From the NCBI GenBank assembly GCA_902794125.1, contig CADBFX010000021.1, positions 1 to 33,178 on the forward strand: 33,178 bases of DNA, written 5' to 3'. The stretch's first letter is position 1. Each line of letters begins with the position of its first letter. A program made the translations under genes and the position numbers. The stretch is from an uncultured Elusimicrobium sp. (lineage in GTDB: Bacteria > Elusimicrobiota > Elusimicrobia > Elusimicrobiales > Elusimicrobiaceae). Below the pieces are notes generated by a model. The model had not been told where the DNA came from. It made no database searches and worked only from the letters and a program-made list of their open reading frames with translations. Below are positions 15,969 to 24,178 of the stretch, piece after piece.

Positions 15969-15996
15969 TTTTTAGAAATTGAAAAAAAGGTACAAT
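15969..15996 (+). promoter_or_regulatory. promoter of the YejM-like gene, leaderless type
   Basis: TACAAT (15991-15996) ends exactly 6 bases before the ATG at 16003, so transcription would start at the start codon. A weak TTTTTA lies 16 bases upstream. The block AAAAAGGTACAAT resembles AAAAAGGTATAAT in front of the HIT gene. Confidence 0.45.
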
Positions 15997-16002
15997 ATAA
16001 GT

Positions 16003-17796
16003 ATGCTCCCCCGTAATCTCTTTACTTTTTTTCTTCTGCAAGGCTTCTTGTGGTGTTTAACGGCCTTAGGATTTTTTTACAGCAATGGCTTTTATACGGA
16101 CGGGTGGGGACTTTTATTTACACTCGTTTTTATCCCCGGGCAAATGTTTCTGTTTGCTTGGGCCTTTGCCTTATTATGTTTCCCCTTTAAATGGATTGGC
16201 CCGCGTGCCTTGGCAAGTGCTTGCGTAATAAGCGGCAGTTTATTCTCCTTTTTTTTGGCCGCGGATATAGTCGTCTTTGCGCAATACCGTTTTCATATCG
16301 GGATATCTTTACTGGAACTGTTTTTCGGGCCGGCCGGGCGGGAAATTTTTATATTTTCTGCCGGTATGTGGTTGTTAATAGTAGGACTCATACTCTTAAT
16401 TATTTCCCTGGAAATAGGCCTGGTCTTTCTATCAAAAAAAATTCATTTGTCGGGCCGTGTTTTCTTGCTGATAGCGGGGATATGGATTGTTTGTTTTTCC
16501 CTATATAATGGAGTATATGCATGGGGCAAATTTAAAATGATCCCGTCCGTCATGGCGCAATCATCCGTTTTGCCCCTGGCCTATCCGCTATCTGCCAACC
16601 GCCGTTTAGAAAAATGGGGATTTACCCACTCTCAAACGCCCTACCAGTTACCACATAAAGGCAGCCTTACTTATCCCCTTCAGCCGCTGACTTGCGCCGC
16701 GAAAACTCCCTTGAAAAATATATTAATTATTTTGGTAGATTCCTGGCGGGGCGACATGTTAAACCCACAGGTAATGCCTAAATTATCATCTTGGCTCAAA
16801 CATCCCGGCATGCATGTATTTACCAACCATTTATCGGGTGGAAATTCCACAATGGGTGGCGTATTTTCCCTGTTTTACGCAATTCCGTCCTCGTACTGGG
16901 ACGATTTTACTTCCGAGCAATTGTCCCCCGTTATTGTTACCCATGCACAAGAACTCGGTTACGAGTCGGGCATTTTTGCCAGCAGCAACTTGTCCAGCCC
17001 CGAATTTTACCGCAATGTTTTTGCCACCATCCCCAACTTGCGTTTAGGCTCGGCCGGTAATTCCAGCTGGGCCCGCGATATAAATGCGGTAGAAGATTTT
17101 GAAAAATTTTTGCAAACGCGCGACACTCAAAAACCGTTTTTTGGGTTTATCTTTTTAGATGCTCCCCATGCATATGACTATCCGGCAAACGCGGCCCGTT
17201 TTACCCCGGCTAAACCGATAAATTATTTACTGCTTACCCATAAAACGGACCCCGCGCCCTATCTCAACCGATACAAAAACGCTGTTTATTTTAATGACGG
17301 ATTGATTGACCAAGTTTTAACTTCTCTAAAACAACAAGGGTTGCTGAAAAACACTTTGATTATTTTAACCGGAGATCACGGACAAGAACTGAATGACTCC
17401 CATCAAAATTACTGGGGACACAACAGTAATTTTACCGATTACCAAACAAAAGTACCGTTTGTCATCTATGATCCTTCCCGCCCACAGACAACTTCTTATA
17501 CACATCGCACGTCCCACCATGACGTCGCCCCTACAATCTTGCAGGATATATACGGTTGCACCAATCCGCCTGCGGATTACGCATTGGGTCGTTCGCTTTT
17601 TGACCAAACCCCCCGCCCGTTCACCGTATTTGCCGGGCATACCGAAAAAGTCATACGCATCGGAGATGACATTACGGTATTTAATAAATTCGGCGGTTTG
17701 AATAGATACGACGCGCATCTATCCCCTGTGCAAACGTCGCCGGATCCGGACACTTTAAAAGAAGGGCTCAAAGCGTTTGGCCGTTTCTACAAATAA
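16003..17796 (+). CDS. YejM/PbgA-like inner-membrane protein with alkaline-phosphatase-fold (sulfatase) domain
   Basis: This 597-residue protein has five N-terminal membrane helices (about residues 1-165) and a periplasmic sulfatase-fold domain (about 235-590). Order and motifs match YejM/PbgA/LapC, including LPLAYPLSANRRLEKWG before the domain, and LSGGNSTMGG and SLFYAIPSSYWDDF within it. E. coli YejM senses lipopolysaccharide and controls LpxC breakdown, and has lost most metal ligands. Here LVDSW, the NST serine/threonine, GDHGQE and GHNSN look intact, so this copy may be an active hydrolase or phosphoethanolamine-type transferase. The start is the ATG at 16003; a TTG at 15979 is less likely because it sits upstream of the -10 box. 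Confidence 0.88.
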   Translation: MLPRNLFTFFLLQGFLWCLTALGFFYSNGFYTDGWGLLFTLVFIPGQMFLFAWAFALLCFPFKWIGPRALASACVISGSLFSFFLAADIVVFAQYRFHIGISLLELFFGPAGREIFIFSAGMWLLIVGLILLIISLEIGLVFLSKKIHLSGRVFLLIAGIWIVCFSLYNGVYAWGKFKMIPSVMAQSSVLPLAYPLSANRRLEKWGFTHSQTPYQLPHKGSLTYPLQPLTCAAKTPLKNILIILVDSWRGDMLNPQVMPKLSSWLKHPGMHVFTNHLSGGNSTMGGVFSLFYAIPSSYWDDFTSEQLSPVIVTHAQELGYESGIFASSNLSSPEFYRNVFATIPNLRLGSAGNSSWARDINAVEDFEKFLQTRDTQKPFFGFIFLDAPHAYDYPANAARFTPAKPINYLLLTHKTDPAPYLNRYKNAVYFNDGLIDQVLTSLKQQGLLKNTLIILTGDHGQELNDSHQNYWGHNSNFTDYQTKVPFVIYDPSRPQTTSYTHRTSHHDVAPTILQDIYGCTNPPADYALGRSLFDQTPRPFTVFAGHTEKVIRIGDDITVFNKFGGLNRYDAHLSPVQTSPDPDTLKEGLKAFGRFYK

Positions 17797-17812: not shown

Positions 17813-17833
17813 ATTTACACGCTACGTGTAAAT
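17813..17833. terminator. hairpin at the convergent 3' ends, possible bidirectional terminator
   Basis: ATTTACACG pairs perfectly with CGTGTAAAT over CTA. It covers the stop codon of the minus-strand gene and lies 17 bases past the stop of the plus-strand gene. Neither side has a clear T run, so termination is uncertain. Confidence 0.4.
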
Positions 17834-19134
17834 AAAGACTTCACGCGCGTTTTGAGATATTCTTTTAATCGCTGGTGCCACCGAGGATATTGCACCGGAG
17901 CAATGCATAACACCGGGATTACATAATCCGGCCCATAAGTATTAAGCAACCAACATAAACGATGCTGCCCATCTAACAATTCATATGTTCCTTGTGCCAC
18001 AACCGGCATAAATGTTTTATCATATCCATTCTGCAAAGAATGAATGAGTTTAGAAAAACGCTGTTCAGACATGCAAAGACCCGATAATTTTTCGTTTTCC
18101 ATACAGTATTCTCTATATTGATGTACTTGCCCTTGCAGATATCGATATGCATGTGTTTCTTGTAACGACAGCCATTGTCCGTTCCACAATCTTTTAATGC
18201 AGCGTAGCGGAAGTTCTTTTATTTCGTAAACCAATTGCCGCCCTTCTATAAACTTGTAAAAGAACTCATAATCTATCCGAATATGGGGATCTTCCAACAA
18301 TCGTAATGCCGTATATGTACGATAGCGTTTCAATTTTCGCCTATACACCGGATGCCTTGTTTTCCGTCCGAACATCGTATAGCCAAGAGGCTCTATAAAC
18401 CCACAAATAAACCTCTCTGCCGCATGAGCCAGGGAAAACGTCCCTCGCTGGGTAGGCATAAAATCTTCCAAACGAATTTTCCACTTCTTAACCTGTTCCA
18501 ACAATTCAGCCCTGATAGCAAAACAGGTACCTGCTACAAAATGATAATTTTCGTTAATAGAAATGTTTTTCTCTCGTGCATACGCCAATGTAAAGGCCTG
18601 TTTATGTTTAGGATCTTGGGTAATTAAGTTTTCTGCCGCAACTAATCCAATTGTTTTATTGTTATACAGGGCATCAATCGTCGCATGAACGGATAAACCT
18701 CCCAAGATAGCGTTATATAAATTTTTGAACCAATCCGACCGTTTAAAAATTTGATCATAAATATAAATACATTTTCGCCCGGTTCCTTTGGAATGAAGTT
18801 TATAGACAATATCATAGCGTTTTAAATCTGTTTCTGATAGCACTTCCAAAAAGGGCCCGACATCAAATCCTCGGTTTTCACAGGCACACAATTTCACCCC
18901 GGGTTTGTATTTTTTAATTTCTTCTAAAGTTTCCGCAGAAGAATGCTCTGGTATATATGTGACTATTAAATCATGGGTATAAGGAGAAAGATTGCGTAGG
19001 TATTTCCGAATAGCGGGCCAACTATCCATATAATACAGATGTAGGATGACTAAAATCCGACATTTGCGGTTTTTTTCTATTGTTTTCTTATAGAGGAATT
19101 GCCCAACCAGGTGGGAAAAATAAGTATTAGACAT
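17815..19134 (-). CDS. RgpF-like polysaccharide-synthesis protein with C-terminal ParB/sulfiredoxin-like segment
   Basis: This 439-residue protein resembles the rhamnan-synthesis F (RgpF) family, with ILVILHLYYMDSW, CENRGFDVGPFLEVL, YDIVYKLHSKGT, FVAGTCFAIRAELLE and an aromatic/basic stretch. RgpF-like proteins take part in surface polysaccharide assembly. Residues about 345-415 form an extra part with YELLDGQHRLCWLL, like the DGxHR signature of ParB/sulfiredoxin-fold domains; this is inferred from the motif alone. Sampled stretches are about 32-43% GC, against roughly 42-58% in nearby dnaG, so recent transfer is possible. AAGGAG lies 9 bases before the ATG at 19134. No other polysaccharide gene is adjacent. 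Confidence 0.8.
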   Translation of the reverse strand: MSNTYFSHLVGQFLYKKTIEKNRKCRILVILHLYYMDSWPAIRKYLRNLSPYTHDLIVTYIPEHSSAETLEEIKKYKPGVKLCACENRGFDVGPFLEVLSETDLKRYDIVYKLHSKGTGRKCIYIYDQIFKRSDWFKNLYNAILGGLSVHATIDALYNNKTIGLVAAENLITQDPKHKQAFTLAYAREKNISINENYHFVAGTCFAIRAELLEQVKKWKIRLEDFMPTQRGTFSLAHAAERFICGFIEPLGYTMFGRKTRHPVYRRKLKRYRTYTALRLLEDPHIRIDYEFFYKFIEGRQLVYEIKELPLRCIKRLWNGQWLSLQETHAYRYLQGQVHQYREYCMENEKLSGLCMSEQRFSKLIHSLQNGYDKTFMPVVAQGTYELLDGQHRLCWLLNTYGPDYVIPVLCIAPVQYPRWHQRLKEYLKTRVKSLFTRSV

Positions 19135-19178
19135 GATAGACGCTCCTTACAATTCCTGTTAGAGGAGGCCTATCAAAA

Positions 19179-19377
19179 CGGCTGTTACACGTGAGCCAAG
19201 CGAACGGTTCTCAACGTATAACAGCCGCGGTCTGCCGTCCATATAGACGGCAGACACTCGGCACAAAAAACAGGCTCATGACTTCCCATTTTTTGTGCCT
19301 TGAACGGACTGTCTTTTGGAGTTCGCTCGGCCTTTTAGATTTGTGTCTAAAAGTAACCCCGTACCCTAATGATACGG
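19179..19377. repeat. cluster of five hairpins in the intergenic region
   Basis: The 329 bp between the RgpF-like and HIT genes contain no gene. In order they hold: a 16-bp imperfect stem 19179-19195/19210-19227; a perfect 10-bp stem GTCTGCCGTC 19230-19239/19246-19255; a perfect 11-bp stem GGCACAAAAAA 19260-19270/19289-19299; an 8-bp stem CTTTTAGA 19332-19339/19346-19353; and a 5-bp stem CCGTA 19359-19363/19373-19377. The blocks TTTTGTGCC and AACGGACT also occur in the structure at 24431-24550, so this looks like a worn copy of the same repeat family. Confidence 0.7.
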
Positions 19378-19429
19378 TTCCAAAAACAGTAAAATTGTAC
19401 GTATAGTATAGCAAAAATAGATATTTTGG

Positions 19430-19463: not shown

Positions 19464-19799
19464 ATGAATTGTATATTTTGTGGCATTGCCGATGGCTCTG
19501 TAAACAGCCAACTGATTTACGAAGACGAACAAGTAGTCGCGTTTAAAGATTTAAACCCGCAAGCGCCGACCCACTTGCTCATCATCCCGCGCAAACACAT
19601 TGCGCGCTTAACTGAAGCGGATGAACAAGACGCTGCTTTACTAGGGCACATTTTGCTGGTTGCCAAAAAATTGGCCGAAAAATTTGACTTAAAAGATTTT
19701 CGGTTGGTTACCAATAACGGCAAAGGTGCCGGGCAGAGTGTGGATCATTTGCATTTCCACCTGATGGCCGGACGCCGATTCATGTGGCCGGCCGGGTAA
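19464..19799 (+). CDS. HIT family (HinT-like) nucleotide-binding protein
   Basis: This 111-residue protein has CIFC at the N-terminus and the histidine triad HLHFHLM (H95, H97, H99) near the end, with APTHLLIIPRKH in the middle. These define the HinT branch, small homodimeric purine nucleoside phosphoramidases. The CIFC cysteines could hold zinc, as in some HinT proteins. The length is normal. It stands alone between a repeat cluster and the rpsU promoter. Confidence 0.95.
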   Translation: MNCIFCGIADGSVNSQLIYEDEQVVAFKDLNPQAPTHLLIIPRKHIARLTEADEQDAALLGHILLVAKKLAEKFDLKDFRLVTNNGKGAGQSVDHLHFHLMAGRRFMWPAG

Positions 19800-21927: not shown

Positions 21928-23621
21928 ATGGCAACGGGAAATAACAAACCATTAAAAGAGTTATTGGAAGAAGGTAAAGAAAGCGGATTTTTATCGTTAG
22001 AAGAACTAAACCGTTCTATTGCGGAAGCAGACATGAGTGCCGAAGATGTAGACGGAGTAATGGGGACATTGGATAATTTAGGTATCCAAGTGGTAGATCA
22101 GAAAAAATTAAAAGCGGTTGCCGCCCAAGAAAAAGAAGCCCTCAGTGAAGATTGGTCCTCTGTGCCGGATATTTCCAACTCCATTCGCATGTATTTAAGC
22201 GAGATGGGTAAAGTGCCTCTCTTAACGCGCGACGAAGAAATCACTTTAGCCCGCAACATCCGCGAACGCGAAAAAGAACTACGCAAACTTGTGTTGGAAT
22301 CCCCCATCACCATGCGCGAAATTTGCAACTGGGAAGAACTCGTGGACCAGGAAGAAATGACCACCAAGGAACTCATGCCTCGCGGTAAACGCACCACCCG
22401 CGAACTTAACAACATGCGCCGCAAACTGAAAGATGCGGCCACGTTTATCGGCAAACGTGAGCAGGAAATTACTAAGCTGATGAAGGAACTGCGCGAAGGG
22501 AATTTGAGCGATAAAAAGCGCAATAACTACATAGAAAAATTGGAAGCCAAACAAAAAGAAGTAGTTACTGTTATCAATAAATTAAATTTAAACCAAAATA
22601 AAATCAAACGCCTCACCAATAAAATTAAAAACTTGGCAGACCGTCTAACGGAAACCACCAACGACATGAAGCGTTTTGATGAATATTTTGGGCCTTATAA
22701 CGAAGTAAAACGACTGGTTAATCAATTAAAAAACAAAAAAATTACCGAAAAAGAATTTAAAAAGAGAACAAAATTCTCGTTGGAAGAACTAGAACGGGCG
22801 CTAGCAAACATTGAAGACGTGCGCCGCCGCCACGCCCAAATGGTAGATATGCTACCCATGACGGAAAAAGAATTCATTTCGTTTAATGACCGCATCGTGT
22901 TTTTTGAAAACATGATTTTGCAAGATAAACTAAAACTTATCAAAGCTAACTTGCGTTTGGTGGTGTCCATTGCCAAAAAACACGTTAATTCCAATTTGGA
23001 ACTGTCCGACCTGATTCAAGAAGGTGGGTTAGGACTTATGAAAGCGGTGGAAAAATTTGAATACAAACGCGGATTTAAATTTTCCACGTATGCCACTTGG
23101 TGGATTCGGCAGAGCATCAACCGCGCACAATCCGTATTCCCGTGCACATGAAGGAACTCGTTTCCAAATTGACCAAAGTAACAAACAAATTCCGCCAAGA
23201 ACACGGTCGCGAACCCACCTTGGAAGATTATTCCAAAACGCTGCGTCTTTCTATGGAAAAAGTAAAGAGCGTGCTTAAAATCATGCAAGACCCGATTTCT
23301 CTTTCCACGCCAATTGGTGAAGATGAAGATTCCAACTTGGAAGATTTTATTGAAGATAAGTCCGGGCCAAACCCGACCACTGCGGCGGGCGATTTCCTAC
23401 GCAAGCAAGAAGTGGCTGAGGTGCTAAAAACCTTGTCCGAACGCGAAGCCAAAATTATTAGCCTTCGCTTTGGGATTGATTCGGGTTATCCCCGCACGCT
23501 GGAGGAAGTGGGCAAGATGTTTAATGTAACACGCGAGCGTGTGCGCCAGATTGAAGCCAAGGCCATCCGCAAATTGCGTCATCCCAGCCGCACGAAACTA
23601 CTCAAAGATTACCAAGAGTAA
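21928..23621 (+). pseudogene. rpoD: RNA polymerase primary sigma factor (sigma-70), reading frame broken in region 2.4
   Basis: The first frame (ATG 21928, TTGAGGAAATT as ribosome site) has region 1.1, region 1.2 ([20 protein letters not shown]), a lysine-rich non-conserved region of about 190 residues, and region 2 through [16 protein letters not shown], then meets a stop at 23151. The second frame continues from 23124 with [11 protein letters not shown], region 3, and region 4 with LEEVGKMFNVTRERVRQIEA, ending at 23621. Nearly all primary sigmas read [16 protein letters not shown] here, so the codons for IADQA are missing. The junction fits loss of 19 bases at 23121-23128. Restoring 19 bases gives exactly 571 codons. 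As the gene is essential, an assembly error or a second copy elsewhere is likely. Confidence 0.9.
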
Positions 23622-23658: not shown

Positions 23659-24135
23659 TTAATTACTACTTAACATACTACCTGGGAAATATTGACTGCA
23701 CCCGGGGCCGGAACACGTAACATAATTAAGTTTTCCATGAGAAAGATGATACACTAAATCAAAATTATCACTTCCGCTGTTAGTAGCATATCCGGCATTT
23801 ACAGTGCCCGAGGAACCGCTTGCATTAGTAACAATCCATAAAGTTCCTCCCGGAAGTTCTACACGCGGTATCTCTATATCAAAATCATTCTCCCCCCATA
23901 AATTATTCCAATCCCCTGTATAAGAGCCATAACCACGTTGATAACTACCATCTTCCAAATAAGCCATGTTTACTGCCTTCACTAGCGCGCCAGTAGCGGT
24001 AAGGACTTTTACTCCTTTTGCTTTTTTAACTGCCTTAGTATATTGCGGCAACGCTACGCTGGACAATATACCAATAATTAACACTACTACTAATAGTTCT
24101 ACAAGCGTAAAACCGCGTTTAAATGTGTTTTTCAT
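23659..24135 (-). CDS. type IV pilin (PilA/PilE-like prepilin)
   Basis: This 158-residue prepilin has a short basic leader MKNTFKRG, cut before FTLVELLVVVLIIGILSSVA. The glycine at -1 and glutamate at +5 are present. The hydrophobic helix is followed by LPQYTKAVKKAKG and a globular head. Two cysteines in CSGPGC near the end could form a small disulfide loop. It would be the fibre subunit of a pilus or pseudopilus, with PilT encoded 600 bp away. The ATG at 24135 has AAGGAA 8 bases upstream; a TTG at 24156 is not needed. It stands alone, convergent with rpoD. Confidence 0.92.
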   Translation of the reverse strand: MKNTFKRGFTLVELLVVVLIIGILSSVALPQYTKAVKKAKGVKVLTATGALVKAVNMAYLEDGSYQRGYGSYTGDWNNLWGENDFDIEIPRVELPGGTLWIVTNASGSSGTVNAGYATNSGSDNFDLVYHLSHGKLNYVTCSGPGCSQYFPGSMLSSN

Positions 24136-24154
24136 TGTTTTGTTCCTTTTTTTC

Positions 24155-24178
24155 AAATTTTACTGACAAGTAAAATTT
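24155..24178 (-). promoter_or_regulatory. perfect hairpin in the pilin mRNA leader
   Basis: AAATTTTACT (24155-24164) pairs with AGTAAAATTT (24169-24178) over GACA. On the minus strand it ends 19 bases before the pilin ATG, next to the ribosome site. It has no T run. It could affect mRNA stability or translation, or be part of the adjoining repeat region. Confidence 0.45.

What the first reader, a model, noticed from the sequence alone, without database searches (positions are those of the whole stretch)
17815..19134. RgpF-like protein with a C-terminal DGQHR motif, in AT-rich DNA
The N-terminal two thirds resemble RgpF. The C-terminal segment YELLDGQHRLCWLL resembles the nucleotide-binding signature of ParB/sulfiredoxin folds. 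Such a fusion could couple polysaccharide assembly to nucleotide hydrolysis or phosphorylation. Composition differs from neighbours, and no polysaccharide cluster is adjacent.
Basis: partly seen in the sequence, partly recalled or inferred. Interest (0 to 1): 0.6.

Follow-up and report, generated by a model that had tools for sequence, protein, structure and literature searches.

The report
Sugar-transferase fusion behind pilin-type leader RNA
A rumen bacterium carries a sugar-transferase fused to a ParB-like nucleotide-binding domain, and the gene sits behind a large, previously uncatalogued folded RNA that the same bacterial family places in front of dozens of pilin and surface genes, probably to control them.

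Summary
Window 17815-19134 (-) encodes an intact 439-aa protein: an RgpF domain (PF05045, E 3e-19) plus a C-terminal domain with DGQHR. The same architecture occurs in two other rumen Elusimicrobium genomes, with both halves under purifying selection. It also occurs in pieces, broken by an IS30 element, in an exopolysaccharide/dTDP-rhamnose cluster of a Lactiplantibacillus plasmid. Profile comparison places the C-terminal domain with ParB N-terminal (ParB/Srx-fold) domains (probability 92-94%; shuffled controls at most 3%). Pfam cut-offs are not reached and the shallow AlphaFold models are uninformative. Nucleotide use is inferred, not shown.

Outside the given coordinates is a stronger find. 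The gene's leader (19175-19390, -) is one copy of a ~215-nt structured RNA absent from Rfam. It has a long-range pseudoknot of usually 9-12 bp whose sequence differs in almost every copy yet stays complementary (24/24 discovery copies; 46/49 validation copies). It ends in an intrinsic-terminator-like hairpin. It occurs in 77 of 231 class genomes, all in two genera of one family, up to at least 52 copies per genome. It lies about 37 nt upstream of type IV pilin-like genes in 49 of 65 copies, otherwise mostly of exported or glycan genes. Leader plus gene fill a site that is empty in eight relatives.

The parts
17815..19134 (-). 439-aa RgpF + ParB-like fusion gene (CDS)
   Evidence: intact ORF; full-length homologues in G015/L010 (64%) and G011/L011 (60%)
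18409..19095 (-). RgpF domain (PF05045), residues 14-242, putative glycosyltransferase
   Evidence: Pfam E 3.3e-19, 69 bits against cut-off 25; the N[KR]G.D..PF and YD.V.K.H.K motifs are also in the stand-alone RgpF of L054
17896..18234 (-). C-terminal ParB/Srx-like domain, residues about 301-413
   Evidence: conserved unit with the Lactiplantibacillus homologue; HHalign 92-94% to ParB_N domains; dN much smaller than dS
17959..17973 (-). DGQHR (residues 388-392), equivalent of the ParB Box II (GxxR) motif
   Evidence: invariant in all four homologues; aligned with DGHxR/DGWxR of ParB_N domains
19175..19390 (-). structured leader RNA element, about 215 nt (P1-P6 plus pseudoknot and U-run)
   Evidence: MFE z-score -9.3; CM R1 117.7 bits, E 1.6e-32 in the window for its P4-P6 part (this copy is one of the sequences in the model); covariation; many copies in related genomes
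19379..19390 (-). P1 5' strand ACUGUUUUUGGA
   Evidence: pairs with 19309-19320; changed on both sides in copy L121; coordinates
19309..19320 (-). P1 3' strand UCCAAAAGACAG
19359..19378 (-). hairpin P2 inside P1
   Evidence: fold and alignment
19333..19352 (-). hairpin P3 inside P1 (variable)
19321..19332 (-). junction strand J (GGCCGAGCGAAC) of the pseudoknot
   Evidence: 12 consecutive pairs (G-U allowed) with 19194-19205; complementary in 24/24 copies, own score 24.7 against permuted 13.1 sd 0.7; validated in 46/49 further copies
19194..19205 (-). P6 loop strand L (GUUCGCUUGGCU) of the pseudoknot
19260..19299 (-). hairpin P4, with a loop that falls into a few sequence classes between copies
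   Evidence: helix 1 of A8, 9 of 9 pairs with changes on both sides
19227..19257 (-). hairpin P5
   Evidence: helix 3 of A8, 10 of 11 pairs with changes on both sides
19175..19227 (-). P6 hairpin plus U-run, intrinsic-terminator-like
   Evidence: helix 4 of A8, basal pairs invariant or nearly so; mean 6.6 T in the 8 nt after the hairpin over 60 matched copies
19405..19410 (-). -10-like hexamer TATACT upstream of P1 (putative promoter)
   Evidence: sequence; similar TATACT in part of the copies; not tested
19143..19148 (-). AAGGAG ribosome-binding site
   Evidence: sequence
15979..17796 (+). DUF3413 + sulfatase (YejM-like) gene flanking the insertion site
   Evidence: Pfam; full-length homologues across most of the genus
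19464..19799 (+). HIT-family gene, other flank; directly after the sulfatase in eight relatives
   Evidence: family name assigned from its sequence

Best explanation
The gene encodes a cytoplasmic surface-glycan glycosyltransferase (RgpF type) whose C-terminal ParB/Srx-like domain most likely binds a nucleotide and gates or assists the transferase. Shown: the two-domain architecture, its conservation across species and in a distant polysaccharide cluster, purifying selection on both parts, and profile similarity to ParB_N. Inferred: catalytic activity, nucleotide binding and the coupling. The gene is expressed from a structured leader RNA. Shown: the fold by covariation, the copy-specific pseudoknot, the terminator-like 3' hairpin and its position close upstream of pilin-like and other surface genes across two genera. 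Inferred: the leader is a cis-acting attenuator, with transcripts ending at P6 unless an unknown signal or factor changes the fold or lets polymerase read through, so that this glycan enzyme is co-regulated with the pilin-like repertoire in genomes that carry many copies. Leader and gene occupy the site together, as a single-gene insertion between the sulfatase and HIT genes.
For: RgpF hit. Same architecture in two other species at 60-64% identity. dN 0.2-0.3 with dS saturated over both domains. Lactiplantibacillus plasmid pMK01 carries RgpF pieces and a DGQHR domain inside an EPS cluster with rfbACBD. HHalign 92-94% to ParB_N against at most 3.2% for shuffled controls. A stand-alone RgpF in the genus follows dTDP-rhamnose genes, and the window's genome has a dTDP-sugar epimerase elsewhere. 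Leader: fold z -9.3; 26 of 33 pairs with compensatory changes, 98% of cells paired, 0/500 shuffles as high; pseudoknot in 24/24 and 46/49 copies; T-rich tract after P6; 49 of 65 copies precede pilin-like genes, others include polysaccharide pyruvyl transferase, DUF4422+GT8, GT9 and sulfatase genes. Empty site in eight relatives.
Against: No Pfam or NCBIfam ParB model reaches its cut-off. Canonical chromosomal ParB alone does not match (HHalign 1.4%). The AlphaFold models are weak and have no PDB match. The third homologue (G011) lacks the leader at its locus. The window's U-run is short (TTTTGATA). In the window's own genome only one strong copy of the RNA was found, so co-regulation with pilins there is not supported. 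No expression data.
Confidence: 0.6

Rival explanations
1. The C-terminal domain is a small-molecule or glycan kinase of the SerK/SbnI kind that phosphorylates the acceptor or a precursor, making a phosphoglycan.
For: DGxHR motif of the ParB/Srx fold; an archaeal ParB-annotated protein is an ADP-dependent serine kinase (PMC5120207, abstract); ATP binders occur among ParB-like fusions (PMC12704722).
Against: The 2025 survey found that nucleotide specificity cannot be read from sequence. No glycan-phosphate pathway is adjacent, and no kinase-specific residues could be tested.
Confidence: 0.25
2. The C-terminal domain has lost catalysis and serves as an oligomerisation or docking module for the glycosyltransferase.
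For: The three Elusimicrobium proteins are the only full-length examples found; the ParB fold is known for dimer switching.
Against: DGQHR and the flanking Box I-like region are invariant across two phyla and strongly constrained, which suggests an active pocket.
Confidence: 0.2
3. The leader RNA is an independent, self-terminating small RNA (own promoter and terminator) acting in trans, and lies near pilin genes only because it is copied with them.
For: Promoter-like box, complete fold and terminator-like end; many copies per genome.
Against: Consistent orientation and a tight distance (median 37 nt) to the downstream start codon in nearly all copies point to action in cis.
Confidence: 0.2
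4. The repeated leader is a DNA-level mobile or recombination element (attC-like or transposon end) rather than an RNA regulator.
For: Dispersed, high copy number and variable between genomes; the window site is empty in relatives.
Against: Compensatory changes in every helix tested, a pseudoknot, a U-run and one fixed orientation towards the start codon fit RNA function; no recombinase is linked in the window; copies differ in sequence as old, diverged elements would.
Confidence: 0.12

Closest known systems
RgpF / rhamnan synthesis F family (PF05045)
   Same: residues 14-242 match well above cut-off; a stand-alone relative in the genus sits beside dTDP-rhamnose genes
   Different: only the C-terminal half of the Pfam model is present (positions 258-493), and it carries a ParB-like C-terminal domain; no rhamnose genes adjacent
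ParB_N / ParB-CTPase fold fusions (PMC12704722)
   Same: Box I/Box II-like arrangement with DGxHR; fused to another enzyme domain as many orphan ParB-like proteins are
   Different: partner is a glycosyltransferase, not named in the main text of that survey; below the PF02195 cut-off; extra conserved N-terminal part (T..Y.YL.G....Y..Y)
SerK, the ADP-dependent serine kinase of the ParB fold (PMC5120207)
   Same: ParB-type domain in a metabolic rather than partition role
   Different: substrate and activity unknown here
DGQHR-domain (DndB) proteins
   Same: share the DGQHR pentapeptide (from memory)
   Different: no NCBIfam match of any such model
c-di-GMP / cGAMP riboswitches ahead of pilin genes; processive antitermination leaders (EAR, put)
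   Same: structured 5' leader in front of pili/surface genes (analogy from memory and abstracts only)
   Different: no Rfam family matches; different helix plan with a J-to-terminator-loop pseudoknot of copy-specific sequence; ligand unknown

Membership tests
RgpF (PF05045) | match above curated cut-off | tested here: met
   69.4 bits against 25, E 3.3e-19
RgpF (PF05045) | glycosyltransferase activity | not testable with these tools
   motifs retained; activity needs biochemistry
ParB/Srx fold | profile similarity to ParB_N domains across Box I and Box II | tested here: met
   HHalign 94.1% and 91.8% on a second set; shuffled maximum 3.2%
ParB/Srx fold | Pfam PF02195 / PF08857 / NCBIfam cut-off | tested here: not met
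   no hit
ParB/Srx fold | predicted structure matches ParB/Srx structures | tested here: inconclusive
   3-sequence AF2 models, pLDDT 47 and 71, no PDB match
canonical ParB partition protein | HTH and dimerisation domains, parA neighbour | tested here: not met
   RgpF is the only family above cut-off; no partition gene seen among the window's ORFs
ParB-fold NTP binders (CTP/ATP/GTP) | nucleotide binding | not testable with these tools
   needs binding assay
DGQHR/DndB proteins | NCBIfam model match | tested here: not met
known Rfam families | match to any of 4227 models | tested here: not met
   none at gathering threshold in the whole window; only a chance-level Histone3 hit at E 0.17 around the gene
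structured cis-regulatory RNA | compensatory base changes beyond column shuffles | tested here: met
   26/33 pairs, score 0.475 against 0.232, 0/500 shuffles; pseudoknot
structured cis-regulatory RNA | fixed position in front of a defined gene set | tested here: met
   median 37 nt before the start codon; 49 of 65 pilin-like
riboswitch | ligand-dependent switching | not testable with these tools
   no ligand known

The most novel reading that the evidence does not exclude
Gut Elusimicrobiaceae use a new class of large pseudoknotted leader RNAs, up to at least 52 copies per genome, each with its own complementary J-loop barcode, to control pilin-like and envelope-glycan genes one by one. The RNA and its gene can travel as single-gene insertions, and the RgpF-ParB enzyme, itself a new nucleotide-gated glycosyltransferase, is one such cargo.
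Probability: 0.35. Interest if true: 0.85.

Novelty: new variant of a known kind. Interest (0 to 1): 0.68.

Why it matters
If right, the protein adds glycan assembly to the roles taken over by the ParB nucleotide-switch fold, and the leader RNA is a large, uncatalogued regulatory RNA class tied to the many pilin-like genes of gut Elusimicrobiaceae. Each part is testable: the domain by nucleotide binding, the RNA by transcription assays with pseudoknot-breaking and restoring changes in a laboratory reporter. The copy-specific yet always complementary pseudoknot is an unusual signal that asks why each copy needs its own sequence.

Tried and rejected
Phage or plasmid origin of the gene: no full-length or close C-domain match in phages, plasmids or IMG/VR, apart from the Lactiplantibacillus plasmid; the RNA's P6 pattern is also absent from IMG/VR. 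Weak profile hits of the C-domain elsewhere in Elusimicrobiota: in the seven loci inspected none held DGxHR in an open frame. GmrSD_N (DUF262) assignment by Pfam at E 0.014-0.048: below cut-off and covering only part of the domain. PDB sequence search with the C-domain profile gave only PDZ and other chance hits. Structure search with the AlphaFold domain model: no match, judged uninformative because only three sequences were available. Canonical ParB as the closest relative: rejected (1.4%). The E. minutum and riboswitch literature searches found no description of this RNA; most subscription papers are not held.

Full report
WHAT WAS CHECKED. The window lies in a 1.43-Mb genome (G000) of an Elusimicrobium-like gut genus. 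The two named records holding the gene are rumen Elusimicrobium assemblies RUG130 and RUG129. The ORF at 17815-19134 (-) is intact, 439 aa. Pfam gives one family above cut-off: RgpF, residues 14-242, E 3.3e-19. GC is 0.388 against 0.447 for the neighbouring sulfatase gene, and third-position GC 0.36 against 0.47-0.49.

IS THE ARCHITECTURE REAL. Full-length homologues exist in G015 (64% identity) and G011 (60%), both with DGQHR. A profile of the C-terminal domain finds nothing else convincing in 235 class and 341 phylum genomes. A tblastn search of plasmids finds the same two parts on Lactiplantibacillus plantarum plasmid pMK01: an RgpF piece, an IS30-like ISLpl1 transposase gene, a further RgpF piece and then a DGQHR-domain ORF. 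That locus is an exopolysaccharide cluster with rfbA, rfbC, rfbB, rfbD, flippase, polymerase and several glycosyltransferases. The alignment of the four C-terminal domains shows a skeleton of invariant residues including T, YL.G, Y, Y, M, F..LI.S, GYD, V, DGQHR, L, G.D, I and L. Within Elusimicrobium, dN is 0.2-0.3 and dS saturated over RgpF, linker and C-domain alike. The C-domain is therefore kept by selection.

IS THE C-DOMAIN PARB/SRX-LIKE. Pfam and NCBIfam give no ParB hit above cut-off; the best weak Pfam hit is GmrSD_N at E 0.014-0.048. The Lactiplantibacillus domain hits, among very few weak matches, proteins annotated as ParB in two phages, and a Persicobacter plasmid protein that Pfam assigns to ParB_N at E 6e-6. 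HHalign of the four-sequence profile against a ParB_N set containing these gives probability 94.1%, score 46.7; 40 column-shuffled controls reach at most 2.7% and score 19. Because that set was found by similarity to the query, I built a second set from phage homologues of the Persicobacter protein (one of its eight rows was only a short fragment): probability 91.8%, score 43, alignment over residues about 348-413 including the last strand; 60 shuffled controls at most 1.5%. The three-Elusimicrobium profile alone scores 63% (its shuffled controls at most 3.2%), and the N-terminal half of the protein 0.2%. Canonical chromosomal ParB alone gives 1.4%. AlphaFold models (pLDDT 47 full length, 71 domain, three sequences) match nothing in the PDB: the domain model was searched; with so few sequences this says nothing either way. 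My reading: a divergent ParB/Srx-fold domain, probability about 0.85; nucleotide use is inferred. The 2025 survey of this fold reports many fusions and binders of CTP, ATP and GTP; the words polysaccharide and rhamn do not occur in its main text and glycosyl occurs only in a reference title (PMC12704722).

CONTEXT. In the window no polysaccharide gene is adjacent; the gene converges on a DUF3413-sulfatase (YejM-like) gene and is divergent from a HIT-family gene. Elsewhere in the genus a stand-alone RgpF (293 aa) directly follows rfbA, rfbC, rfbD and rfbB homologues (L054; gene names read from sequence), and 14 of 61 genomes have an RgpF match. The window's genome has a dTDP-sugar epimerase gene on another contig. 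In eight relatives (G086, G096, G100, G011, G021, G031, G003, G030) the sulfatase is followed directly by the HIT gene after about 17-43 bp; in the window and in G015 the same interval holds this gene and its leader, about 1.67 kb in the window. G011 has its copy at another locus, without the leader. The sulfatase of the window is closer to empty-site genomes (75-76%) than to G015 (62%), so either an old insertion was lost several times or the site was filled more than once.

THE LEADER. The 329 nt between the start codon and the HIT gene fold far better than shuffled sequence (with ten coding bases included: -123.7 against -80.8, sd 4.6; z -9.3). BLAST finds dispersed relatives of it in 41 of 61 genomes of the genus. 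Rfam has no match. Alignment of 24 copies (A6) gives this plan: P1 (CUGUUUUUGG/CCAAAAACAG) encloses hairpins P2 and P3 and a junction strand J; then hairpins P4 and P5; then P6, whose stem CGGCUGUU.../...AACAGCCG is followed by a T-rich tract (mean 6.6 T in 8 nt over 60 matched copies). J is complementary to the loop of P6 over 9-12 consecutive pairs (occasional G-U) in all 24 copies although the sequence differs in nearly every copy: own score 24.7, permuted 13.1 with sd 0.7 and maximum 16.5. In 49 copies not used for that discovery, 46 have a helix of at least 9 bp, with 47 distinct sequences; own 23.5 against permuted 12.6 with sd 0.4. The P4-P6 helices show compensatory change in 26 of 33 pairs, 98.0% of cells paired against 86.2% shuffled, 0 of 500 shuffles as high on any measure; sliding the partners destroys the signal (this alignment was fitted to the model, which favours it somewhat).

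DISTRIBUTION AND CARGO. A covariance model of P4-P6 (R1) finds the element in 61 of 66 genomes of the genus, with 52 copies in G025 and G081 (the number of candidates scored, so a lower bound), 44 in G082 and 43 in G077, but only one strong copy in the window's own genome. In the class it occurs in 77 of 231 genomes, all in two genera of one family. Of 65 copies examined, 48 lie in front of an ORF with the type IV pilin N-terminus FTLIEL or FTLVEL and one more in front of FTFIEL, median 37 nt from element end to start codon (N_methyl confirmed by Pfam for one). The rest include putative lipoproteins and other exported proteins, a polysaccharide pyruvyl transferase, a DUF4422+GT8 protein and a sulfatase, and in the first set a GT9 protein. 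The RgpF-ParB gene is thus one of several envelope-glycan genes behind this RNA.

HOW IT MOST LIKELY WORKS. Inference: transcription starts just before P1 (a TATACT box lies 15-20 nt upstream in the window; other copies vary), the RNA folds with J docked on the P6 loop, and P6 plus the T-tract terminates most transcripts unless a ligand, protein or polymerase modification allows read-through into the gene. The enzyme would then add a sugar, perhaps rhamnose, to a surface glycan, with the ParB-like domain reading a nucleotide. Neither the regulatory signal nor the nucleotide is known. Rivals are listed separately; the self-terminating small-RNA reading and a DNA-element reading are less likely because of the fixed orientation, the tight spacing to the start codon and the compensatory changes.

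LIMITS. The genomes searched appear to be mostly draft or metagenome assemblies; no expression or biochemical data exist here. The window's T-tract is short (TTTTGATA). The count of copies per genome is capped by the search. The literature library holds open-licence papers only, so absence of a description of the RNA is not proof that none exists.

Noticed in passing
window 21928-23621 (+): rpoD is split into two overlapping frames (407 aa and 174 aa) after [10 protein letters not shown], whereas the relative L010 has a single 573-aa ORF; probably a small deletion from assembly rather than biology.
   Followed up: partly
L053 13954-16366 (NZ_CP012657.1 67129-69541): In L. plantarum pMK01 the homologous RgpF + DGQHR gene is interrupted by ISLpl1 and its two later pieces lie in different frames, inside an EPS cluster; no intact copy was seen in the plasmid collection.
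   Followed up: partly
A6/A8 columns of P4; window 19260-19299: The P4 loop falls into a few sequence classes (GGAAGUCAUGAGCC, GGACUAAUUACCC, GGCCUUAUAACCC, GGACCUUCGAAACCC, GAGCUGAUCCCUUA), as if there were subtypes of the RNA.
   Followed up: no
copies such as L100, L102, L105, L113 just upstream of P1: Instead of the TATACT box some copies carry what looks like a short GC-rich hairpin and an AGGAGG-like sequence before ACAATTT; it could be a leader peptide, an upstream terminator or another promoter type.
   Followed up: no
window 23659-24156 (-), L010, L011: Pilin-like ORFs (FTLIELLVVVLIIGIL) in the window's own lineage have no R1 hit near them, although copy-rich relatives carry the RNA at dozens of pilin-like genes.
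   Followed up: partly
G000 contig C38 1056-1114 (L236): A second, weak and shortened R1 hit (29.6 bits) in the window's genome; possibly a decayed copy.
   Followed up: no
G025, G081, G082, G077 against G003, G005, G010, G014: Copy number of the RNA ranges from none detected to at least 52 between species of one genus.
   Followed up: partly
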